IMG/VR virus record: IMGVR_UViG_3300046009_009870
Coordinates: 1 to 41,687 of that record
DNA length: 41,687 nt
Direction: 5' to 3' (one strand)
Source: a virus
Under the pieces are notes generated by a model, which was given only the letters and a program-made list of their open reading frames with translations, was not told the DNA's origin and made no database searches. The translations under genes were made by a program, and so were the position numbers. Below are positions 36,510 to 41,006 of the stretch, piece after piece. The stretch's first letter is position 1, and each line of letters starts with the position of its first letter.

Positions 36510-36716
36510 ATGACGTTGCAGGAGTTTTTTGCAGGACAACCGCGGGGCACCAGGGCGCGGATCGCTAGGGAGTGCGGGATCAGCAAGACGTGGATGAGTC
36601 TGATCCTGAGCGGGCGCCGGCCTGCTGGGGCTCAACTAGCGATCATGATTGAGAAGGCGACCAAAGGTGCTGTGACTAAGGCTGACATTCGGCCAGACAT
36701 ATGGGGGAAGAAATGA
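36510..36716 (+). CDS. Cro/CI-like helix-turn-helix regulator
   Basis: A 68-residue protein with AGGAGGTGAT before the ATG. Residues about 12-38 (GTRARIARECGISKTWMSLI) are a helix-turn-helix of the Cro/YdaS type; the LSGRRPAGAQLAIMIEKATK part completes the domain. Size fits a small Cro-like repressor without a dimerisation/cleavage domain. It lies directly next to the divergent operator, so autoregulation and control of the leftward operon are likely. The next gene overlaps it by 4 nt. Confidence 0.82.
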   Translation: MTLQEFFAGQPRGTRARIARECGISKTWMSLILSGRRPAGAQLAIMIEKATKGAVTKADIRPDIWGKK

Positions 36717-39369: not shown

Positions 39370-39832
39370 AGAACTTGAAACCCTGGCTCCAGCGCCTGCT
39401 GCGGGTCCGACCTTCTGCTCAGCCTGGGGGTGCCCCATGGCAGGCACCTACGGCCGGCATACCTCCACCACGCCCAACCCGAGTTGGTGGTGCGGGTTCC
39501 ATACCGAGACCAACGAGAAGCAGACCGGTGATATCACGCAACTGGTTAAGCAGAACTTTAAGTTTATCCGGGCGGCTTACGCGGTGATGCTGGTGCCGGT
39601 CTCAAAAAAGCAGGAGCAGATCATGAAGGCGTTTGGCAGCACGATGATCAAGGCCGGCCGCCCAGACTTTGCTCCCAAAGAGAACGAGACGCCGTTTAAC
39701 GTGGGCTACCGCATCTTGCGTCAACTCCAGACCGAGATCAGCGGCGATAAGCGGCAGAGCGAGAAGACCGAGAGCGGCGAAGACAAAGACGTCGTTGAAC
39801 TGGGCGAGATCTTGCGTTCCCTGCGCGTATGA
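39359..39832 (+). CDS. Zinc-finger-like replication-region protein
   Basis: A 157-residue protein. Residues 17-50 carry a Cys/His pattern (FCSAWGCPMAGTYG, then WWCGFHTE) typical of a small zinc finger found next to phage replication proteins. About 60-155 is helical, Lys/Glu-rich, with PVSKKQEQIMKAFGSTMIKA. It overlaps the DUF1376 gene by 11 nt and the RusA gene by 4 nt. A role as replication accessory protein is likely from position; family recognised only in outline. Confidence 0.74.
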   Translation: MRSKELETLAPAPAAGPTFCSAWGCPMAGTYGRHTSTTPNPSWWCGFHTETNEKQTGDITQLVKQNFKFIRAAYAVMLVPVSKKQEQIMKAFGSTMIKAGRPDFAPKENETPFNVGYRILRQLQTEISGDKRQSEKTESGEDKDVVELGEILRSLRV

Positions 39833-40218
39833 AACTGATCCTGACCCTGCCCTGGCCGCCGAGCGTCAACCACTACTGGCGCAACTGGCAGGGTCGCACA
39901 GTGATCTCGCCGGAGGGTAGAAGGTATCGGAAGGCAGTCGAAGAAGAGGTGATGGTTTTCAGAATGAATAAAAAATTAAACAAGCAACTCAAGGTGACGA
40001 TTACGGCGTACCGGCCAGACAACCGGCGGCGAGATCTGGACAACCTACTGAAGGCGGTACTCGATGCCCTTACGCACGCCGGGGTGTATGAGGATGACCA
40101 TCTGATCTGTGACCTGCGGATCTGCTGGGGGGCGGGCAATCTTAAAAAACTAGACGTTCACATCGAGGAGATTGAAAGTGACGAGGGAAGAGAACCACGA
40201 CCCGCACGAGGCGATTGA
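39829..40218 (+). CDS. rusA: Holliday junction resolvase, RusA family
   Basis: A 129-residue protein. The core RPDNRRRDLDNLLKAVLDAL contains Asp69, Asp71 and Lys75, followed by Asp89/Asp90 in VYEDDHLI, the residues expected for RusA metal binding and catalysis. N-terminal LTLPWPPSVNHYW is the usual RusA opening. It would resolve four-way junctions formed during phage recombination and replication. It starts at an ATGA overlap. The C-terminal 10 residues are an Arg/Glu-rich tail that overlaps the next gene by 41 nt. Confidence 0.9.
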   Translation: MKLILTLPWPPSVNHYWRNWQGRTVISPEGRRYRKAVEEEVMVFRMNKKLNKQLKVTITAYRPDNRRRDLDNLLKAVLDALTHAGVYEDDHLICDLRICWGAGNLKKLDVHIEEIESDEGREPRPARGD

Positions 40219-40516
40219 GTTTATTTTCAAATACGCTAAGCATTACGCAAAGGCAAAGGCGCAACGGATTTACCTGGAAGAGTTTCGCAAAAGCAAGAAG
40301 GCGCTGCTGATGAAGGCTAGCGGCCAGGACACGATTGGAGCTCAAGAGCGGGACGCTTACGCGGCGGAGGACTATCGGGAGCTTCTTGAAGGCCTGAGAG
40401 AGGCGATTGAAAACGAGGAGGCGCTGCGCTGGTCTTTAGTTGCCGCACAAGCCAGGGTTGAAGTGTGGCGCACAGAGCAGGCAAACTATAGGGCAGAGGG
40501 TAAGGCAACGATTTGA
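40178..40516 (+). CDS. Conserved helical phage protein next to rusA
   Basis: A 112-residue protein starting at GTG 40178 with GGAG 7 nt upstream. It is helical and Lys/Glu/Ala-rich: FIFKYAKHYAKAKAQRIYLE, FRKSKKALLMKASG, LREAIENEEALRWSLVAAQA and a terminal RTEQANYRAEGKATI. This sequence is highly conserved among phages downstream of rusA; function unknown. Its stop codon directly abuts the first base of the tRNA. Confidence 0.82.
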   Translation: MTREENHDPHEAIEFIFKYAKHYAKAKAQRIYLEEFRKSKKALLMKASGQDTIGAQERDAYAAEDYRELLEGLREAIENEEALRWSLVAAQARVEVWRTEQANYRAEGKATI

Positions 40517-40591
40517 CGCGGGGTAGAGCAGTGGTAGCTCGTCGGGTTCATAGTCCGAAGGTCGTGGGTTCGACTCCCACCCCCGCCACCA
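40517..40591 (+). tRNA. Initiator-like tRNA-Met (CAT)
   Basis: A 75-nt tRNA with encoded CCA. Acceptor arms CGCGGGG (40517-40523) and CCCCGCC (40581-40587) pair except position 1:72 (C:C). D-stem GAGC/GCTC, anticodon CAT at 40549-40551 in a TCGGG/TCCGA stem, variable region AGGTC and T-arm GTGGG/CCCAC. Initiator features: mismatch at 1:72, A11:U24, and G29-C41 and G30-C40, although G31 faces U39 as a wobble. The sequence is close to the E. coli initiator tRNA over most of its length, with a shorter D loop. It starts one base after the previous TGA. Confidence 0.93.
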
Positions 40592-40608
40592 AAACGGTCC
40601 AGCCGGAG

Positions 40609-40704
40609 GTGACCGGGATTAGACACCGAAAAACACCGGCAGCAGGGGCCGCCATCCGATATGCAAGGTATCGGTTAACTCCAGGCGGTGACCCTGCACC
40701 ATGA
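40609..40704 (+). CDS. Possible tiny coupled peptide
   Basis: A 31-codon frame from GTG 40609 to the TGA at 40702-40704, which overlaps the next ATG (ATGA). The frame reads TGIRHRKTPAAGAAIRYARY and ends LTPGGDPAP. A perfect GGAGGTGA lies at 40605-40612 but the GTG sits inside it; at normal spacing the only in-frame codon is ATT (40618). So either initiation is at ATT, the GTG is used without its own site, or this is a leader for the nuclease. It is basic and helical. Confidence 0.35.
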   Translation: MTGIRHRKTPAAGAAIRYARYRLTPGGDPAP

Positions 40705-41006
40705 CCAACGAAGAGAAGAAGCACCTCTCCCGCGTGGCGGACCTAGGCTGCGCTGTCTGCCGGCGGATGGGGTTCCCTGGCACCCCAGCAGAAATCCATC
40801 ACAAAAGGGCAGGAACGGGGGCTGGAAGGCGCTCCAGCCACTGGGAGGCTATCCCACTATGCCCAGAGCATCACAGAGGCAACACGGGGCTCCACGGCCT
40901 CGGGACGAAGGGGTTCCCTAAGCGCTGGGGGTTCGACGAAGACGACCTTCTGGCCGACACCAGGGCATTGTTAAGCGATCTTTATCCTGGCCAGCGCAAC
41001 AGTTAA
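40701..41006 (+). CDS. HNH-type / Ref-like nuclease
   Basis: A 101-residue protein. It has a CxxC (LGCAVCRR, Cys17 and Cys20), EIHHKRAG (His33, His34), SSHWEAIPLCPEHHRG (His47, Cys54, His57, His58) and LHGLG. This is the layout of the HNH-like Ref family, whose phage P1 member is a RecA-dependent nuclease; the short size fits. It would cut DNA at sites set by host RecA or act as a homing-type HNH nuclease. The ATG overlaps the preceding stop. Confidence 0.8.
   Translation: MTNEEKKHLSRVADLGCAVCRRMGFPGTPAEIHHKRAGTGAGRRSSHWEAIPLCPEHHRGNTGLHGLGTKGFPKRWGFDEDDLLADTRALLSDLYPGQRNS

What the first reader, a model, noticed from the sequence alone, without database searches (positions are those of the whole stretch)
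40517..40591. Phage-encoded initiator-like tRNA abutting an ORF stop
The tRNA has initiator hallmarks: no Watson-Crick pair at 1:72 (here C:C), A11:U24, and two of the three G-C pairs at the base of the anticodon stem, with the third changed to G-U. It closely resembles the E. coli initiator tRNA except for a shorter D loop. Phage tRNA-Met genes are common, but initiator types are rarer in my knowledge. The gene begins at the base after the stop codon of the preceding ORF, so RNase P must cut at the mRNA end. The C72 and the G31:U39 changes suggest altered formylation or P-site selection, which might bias translation initiation late in infection.
Basis: partly seen in the sequence, partly recalled or inferred. 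Interest (0 to 1): 0.72.

Follow-up and report, generated by a model that had tools for sequence, protein, structure and literature searches.

The report
Phage initiator tRNA with altered loop
This freshwater phage carries its own copy of the tRNA that starts protein synthesis, changed on both sides of the bond where a known bacterial toxin cuts the host's copy, so it may let the phage keep making protein when the host destroys its own starter tRNA.

Summary
40517-40591 is a complete initiator tRNA-fMet gene with encoded CCA, starting at the base after a TGA stop. It is identical over 75/75 bases in two diverged relatives whose flanks differ by 10-15%, and it is the only tRNA in a 56.5-kb relative. 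So it is real and under selection.

Phage initiator tRNAs are not rare, and C1:C72 is one of many tolerated mismatches. It recurs in phages, never with C32 (16/16). Of 225 cellular initiators sampled, 224 read CUCAUAA; phages often do not.

Enteric VapC toxins cut tRNA-fMet between A38 and C39 (PMC4105405), here G38|U39. Best mechanism: a replacement initiator less sensitive to an anticodon-loop nuclease. This is inferred; drift of a spare initiator is a serious rival, since other positions are relaxed in phages too. New variant of a known kind.

The parts
40517..40591 (+). Initiator-type tRNA-fMet(CAU), CCA encoded, C1:C72 mismatch
   Evidence: 75/75 identical in L125, L164, L165
40542..40558 (+). 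Anticodon arm (positions 27-43) UCGGG-UUCAUAG-UCCGA: U32, G38, U39 where cells have C32, A38, C39
   Evidence: comparison sets
40178..40516 (+). Upstream ORF (112 codons, likely GTG start) ending directly before the tRNA; conserved in relatives, no known family
39829..40218 (+). RusA Holliday-junction resolvase
   Evidence: Pfam PF05866, 69.7 bits
40592..40700 (+). Conserved structured RNA directly 3' of the tRNA, two hairpins with covarying pairs; leader of the next gene
   Evidence: fold z -3.3; 5 pairs changed on both sides and kept in 3 sequences; below Rfam thresholds
40701..41006 (+). Ref-like (RecA-dependent) HNH nuclease
   Evidence: Pfam PF16786, 42.9 bits

Best explanation
A working phage-encoded initiator tRNA that is charged with methionine, formylated and used for initiation, and that acts as a replacement when the host's initiator tRNA is cut in the anticodon arm (for example by a VapC-type PIN nuclease, which cuts between A38 and C39). 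Its changes C32->U, A38->G and C39->U alter the cut site while keeping the CAU anticodon, U33, A37, a seven-base loop and a paired 31:39. Shown: it is an initiator-type gene, conserved, the only tRNA of a near-full-length relative, inserted as a cassette, and its loop is of a type nearly confined to phages. Inferred: expression, charging, resistance to any nuclease, and the identity of the nuclease.
For: Formylation and P-site determinants are intact except 31:39 G:U (PMC7949028). 75/75 identity while flanks diverged 15% and 10%; chance of no change 3e-6 and 3e-4. Sole tRNA in the 56.5-kb relative. Within the anticodon arm it differs from the usual proteobacterial initiator only at 32, 38 and 39, and VapC cuts between A38 and C39 (PMC4105405). 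G38: 11 pattern hits in 84,980 cellular genomes against 18 (16 real tRNAs) in IMG/VR; 8 of the 11 genomes also hold a standard A38 initiator. A Psychrobacter MAG shows the same three positions changed (G32, G38, U39) against its own standard initiator, in a tRNA sitting inside a phage capsid operon. 224 of 225 sampled cellular initiators have CUCAUAA against 109 of 118 phage ones (p 4e-4), and over 100 distinct phage initiators have 32 other than C. General precedent: van den Berg et al. 2023 (PMC10264068).
Against: Phage initiators are also relaxed at positions far from any known cut site (3, 4, 67, 69) and at 31:39, and 32/38 are not singled out in an unbiased sample, so loss of constraint could give the same changes. 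Most phage initiators in that sample keep the CUCAUAA loop (109 of 118), including isolates. The host is unknown, so no nuclease can be named. The effect of 32/38/39 changes on VapC cutting of tRNA-fMet was not found in the readable literature.
Confidence: 0.42

Rival explanations
1. A spare initiator tRNA that raises initiator dosage during infection; the loop and stem changes are near-neutral drift allowed because the host's own initiators remain.
For: Phage initiators are relaxed at many positions, not only in the loop. High initiator levels help initiation fidelity (PMC7949028). Changes keep pairing (G:C to G:U).
Against: This tRNA is not drifting now: 0 changes in 75 while flanks changed 10-15%. 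The same 32/38/39 set appears in a prophage of another genus.
Confidence: 0.33
2. A passenger of a mobile cassette: the junction between the upstream ORF and the Ref-like gene is an insertion hot spot, and the tRNA with the structured RNA came in with, or is maintained by, homing-endonuclease traffic.
For: 14 relatives have the two genes overlapping or abutting, others carry 0.1-2.6 kb inserts there. In L164 an HNH_3/NUMOD4 homing-endonuclease-like ORF ends directly before the tRNA.
Against: Explains arrival, not the retention of an intact, invariant initiator tRNA; no endonuclease is next to it in the window or L125.
Confidence: 0.13
3. One reading: an initiator with altered formylation or P-site selection that biases start-site choice late in infection.
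For: 31:39 is G:U instead of G:C, and the three G:C pairs act in P-site selection (PMC7949028).
Against: The 1:72 mismatch and other formylation determinants are intact. Natural initiators with a changed 29:41 pair are common. No sign of unusual start codons was looked for or seen.
Confidence: 0.07

Closest known systems
Bacterial initiator tRNA-fMet (E. coli metZWV/metY type)
   Same: 1:72 mismatch, G2:C71, C3:G70, A11:U24, G:C at 29:41 and 30:40, CAU anticodon, A37, A73, CCA
   Different: C72 for A72, U32, G38, 31:39 G:U, A9, 7-base D loop, changed T arm
Phage-encoded initiator tRNAs (e.g. Stenotrophomonas phage vB_Sm_QDWS359, Variovorax phage VBv52, Erwinia phage pEa_SNUABM_44)
   Same: Initiator-type tRNA in a phage; U32 also in these three
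   Different: They keep A38 (or have U38) and C39; other gene neighbourhoods
Phage tRNAs with anticodon-loop changes proposed to evade host tRNA nucleases (van den Berg et al. 2023, PMC10264068)
   Same: Loop changes at or near a known nuclease cut site, others kept
   Different: That paper reports that phages generally avoid encoding tRNA-fMet in the VapC case; here the initiator itself is carried and changed. No experiment here
tRNA-associated theta ribozymes of phages (PMC10879173)
   Same: A structured RNA directly 3' of a phage tRNA
   Different: No Rfam match to any ribozyme family at 40592-40700; related structure in L214/L215 stands without a tRNA

Membership tests
Bacterial initiator tRNA-fMet | No Watson-Crick pair at 1:72 | tested here: met
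   C1:C72
Bacterial initiator tRNA-fMet | G2:C71, C3:G70 and A11:U24 | tested here: met
   determinants as listed in PMC7949028
Bacterial initiator tRNA-fMet | Three consecutive G:C pairs 29:41, 30:40, 31:39 | tested here: inconclusive
   29:41 and 30:40 are G:C, 31:39 is G:U. Many accepted initiators deviate at 29:41
Bacterial initiator tRNA-fMet | Charged with Met, formylated, enters the P site | not testable with these tools
   needs biochemistry
Elongator tRNA-Met or tRNA-Ile(CAU) | Paired 1:72 and pyrimidine 11:purine 24 | tested here: not met
   C1:C72, A11:U24; best identity to this class 0.80 against 0.92 for initiators
Nuclease-evading phage tRNA (van den Berg 2023) | Bases at or next to the nuclease cut site differ from the host tRNA | tested here: met
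   A38|C39 is G38|U39; host unknown, but 224 of 225 sampled cellular initiators have CUCAUAA and only 11 of 84,980 genomes gave a G38 pattern hit
Nuclease-evading phage tRNA (van den Berg 2023) | Resistance to the nuclease | not testable with these tools
   needs an in vitro or in vivo cleavage assay
Theta (HDV-like) ribozyme next to tRNA | Covariance-model match to an HDV-like ribozyme starting at the tRNA 3' end | tested here: not met
   no ribozyme family among matches up to E 10

The most novel reading that the evidence does not exclude
Phage initiator tRNAs with changed bases at 32, 38 or 39 are a widespread, repeatedly evolved counter-defence: substitute initiators that keep translation running when the host cuts its own tRNA-fMet at A38|C39 with VapC-like toxins during infection.
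Probability: 0.33. Interest if true: 0.78.

Novelty: new variant of a known kind. Interest (0 to 1): 0.52.

Why it matters
Why phages carry tRNAs is an old open question. Initiator tRNA is not explained by codon usage, because one initiator serves every start. A phage whose only tRNA is an initiator, changed on both sides of the bond that initiator-specific VapC toxins cut, gives a clean and easily tested case of tRNA replacement as counter-defence, and it conflicts with the published view that phages generally avoid encoding tRNA-fMet. If the idea fails, the set of phage initiators with loops not seen in cells still offers natural variants for testing what bases 32, 38 and 39 do in initiation.

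Tried and rejected
Rarity of phage initiators: rejected. Elongator or Ile2 identity: rejected. Altered formylation from C72: not supported. D loop of 7 as special: common in phages. Theta or other known ribozyme after the tRNA: no match. Proteo-phage-1 RNA (RF03044) for the spacer: only 14.9-16.3 bits against a cut-off of 42, and the control genomes ring as well. Loop positions as uniquely relaxed in phages: not shown by the unbiased position table, so the evasion claim is kept moderate. Host by similarity: capsid is 76% identical to Caulobacter phage RW and 88% to an unassigned spring phage, replication genes point elsewhere, so the host stays unknown. A comparison of 29:41 between phage and cell sets was dropped because it follows host class.

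Full report
What is there. The window is one 41.7-kb virus record, apparently a partial genome: capsid, head-decoration and adaptor genes lie at the left, a minus-strand early block at 33-36 kb, and replication/recombination genes at the right end. Its capsid is 88% identical to that of a 57-kb uncultured phage, in which terminase and portal-type (head-to-tail connecting) genes lie next to the capsid gene. None was identified in the window, though only selected ORFs were annotated. At 40517-40591 there is a complete tRNA gene. It has the marks of a bacterial initiator: C1:C72 mismatch, G2:C71, C3:G70, A11:U24, G:C at 29:41 and 30:40, A37, A73 and an encoded CCA. The third G:C pair, 31:39, is G:U. 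Elongator or Ile2 identity is excluded by 1:72 and 11:24 and by similarity.

It is conserved. Three IMG/VR contigs carry the same tRNA at the same place (L125, L164, L165). L125 and L165 differ from the window identically in the shared segments, so they count as one comparison. The tRNA is 75/75 identical to L125 and to L164, while flanking DNA differs by 15% and 10%; the chance of no change at those rates is 3e-6 and 3e-4. In the 56.5-kb record of L125 it is the only tRNA. This is purifying selection on a single initiator tRNA.

Neighbourhood. The gene order RusA - small ORF - Ref-like HNH nuclease is shared by many relatives. In 14 of them the small ORF and the nuclease gene overlap or touch (gap -1, -4 or -10), in L166 and L167 as GTGA. 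In others, 0.1-2.6 kb of other DNA is inserted there. So the tRNA is cargo at an insertion hot spot. That explains why it begins at the base after the stop codon: the cassette sits right at the end of the upstream ORF. In L164 the upstream ORF is a different gene, an HNH_3/NUMOD4 homing-endonuclease-like ORF, yet it too ends ATTTGA directly before the tRNA. The 109 bases after the tRNA fold better than shuffles (z -3.3) with covarying pairs. A shorter related structure occurs upstream of a terminase small subunit gene in L214 and at a similar place in L215. It is not a known Rfam family at threshold.

The unusual part. The loop is UUCAUAG; the usual one is CUCAUAA. With the same pattern in all sets, 126 of 126 initiators in 110 gammaproteobacterial genomes, leaving out one prophage copy, have CUCAUAA with C39. 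In Bacteroidia it is 98 of 99, leaving out two extra copies in the genome chosen for its G38. In the first 118 viral initiators it is 109; Fisher p 4e-4 against 224/225. G38 was then sought in whole collections: 18 hits in IMG/VR, 16 of them real tRNAs, all 16 with 32 other than C, which avoids a C32:G38 pair that would close the loop. There were 11 hits in 84,980 bacterial and archaeal genomes. Of those 11 genomes, 8 also hold a standard A38 initiator alongside a G38 tRNA, and a ninth (G010) has three standard copies and a hit that is not a tRNA. In G006 and G008 only the G38 copy matched. The G38 copy in the Psychrobacter MAG lies inside a phage head operon and differs from that genome's own initiator, within the anticodon arm, at exactly 32, 38 and 39, the same three positions as in the window. 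Isolates with known hosts show similar loops: Erwinia phage pEa_SNUABM_44 UUCAUAU; Variovorax VBv52, Stenotrophomonas QDWS359 and Salicola SCTP-2 UUCAUAA.

Mechanism. VapC of Shigella and Salmonella cuts tRNA-fMet once, between A38 and C39 (PMC4105405, citing Winther and Gerdes 2011). Both bases are changed here, and the base facing 38 as well. Van den Berg et al. (PMC10264068) proposed that phage tRNAs carry loop changes that make them insensitive to host tRNA nucleases, but noted that phages generally avoid tRNA-fMet in the VapC case. I propose that this gene is a substitute initiator of that kind. Steps shown: identity, conservation, cassette insertion, and rarity of the loop in cells. Steps inferred: transcription with the operon, RNase P cutting at the stop codon, charging, formylation, use in initiation, and resistance. 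A G:U at 31:39 should not prevent use, because initiators weakened in these pairs are accepted when the normal initiator is scarce (PMC7949028).

Why only moderate confidence. In the unbiased sample, phage initiators are relaxed also at 3, 4, 31:39, 67 and 69, so drift of spare copies explains part of the pattern. Some viral contigs may include host flanks, which would dilute rather than create the difference. The pattern fixes U33, CAU and A37, so nothing can be said on those. The cellular control covers two classes in depth and G38 only across all genomes. The host, and any nuclease it has, are unknown.

Noticed in passing
40592-40700: Conserved structured RNA with two hairpins and covarying pairs between the tRNA and the Ref-like nuclease gene; a related shorter form stands upstream of a terminase small subunit gene in L214 (5036-5114), and a similar one is in L215 (5122-5200). 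No Rfam family reaches threshold. May be a new RNA motif of freshwater phages.
   Followed up: partly
junction 40516/40701; relatives L166, L167, L173-L239: The junction between the small ORF and the Ref-like HNH gene is an insertion hot spot: abutting or overlapping in 14 relatives, 0.1-2.6 kb inserts in others.
   Followed up: partly
L164 about 855-1334: An HNH_3/NUMOD4 homing-endonuclease-like ORF ends directly before the tRNA, with the same last bases (ATTTGA) as the unrelated ORF in the window.
   Followed up: partly
L272 6035-6109: Initiator tRNA with G32, G38, U39 inside a phage head operon (capsid E, Mu Gp36-like) in a Psychrobacter MAG.
   Followed up: yes
L445, L453, L456: Bradleyvirinae phages of Stenotrophomonas, Janthinobacterium and Xanthomonas carry a tRNA-fMet/Met directly downstream of the large terminase gene.
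   Followed up: no
36510-36716: YdaS-like (Cro-like) protein next to a divergent early block; no clear integrase was seen among the proteins examined, so lifestyle is open.
   Followed up: no
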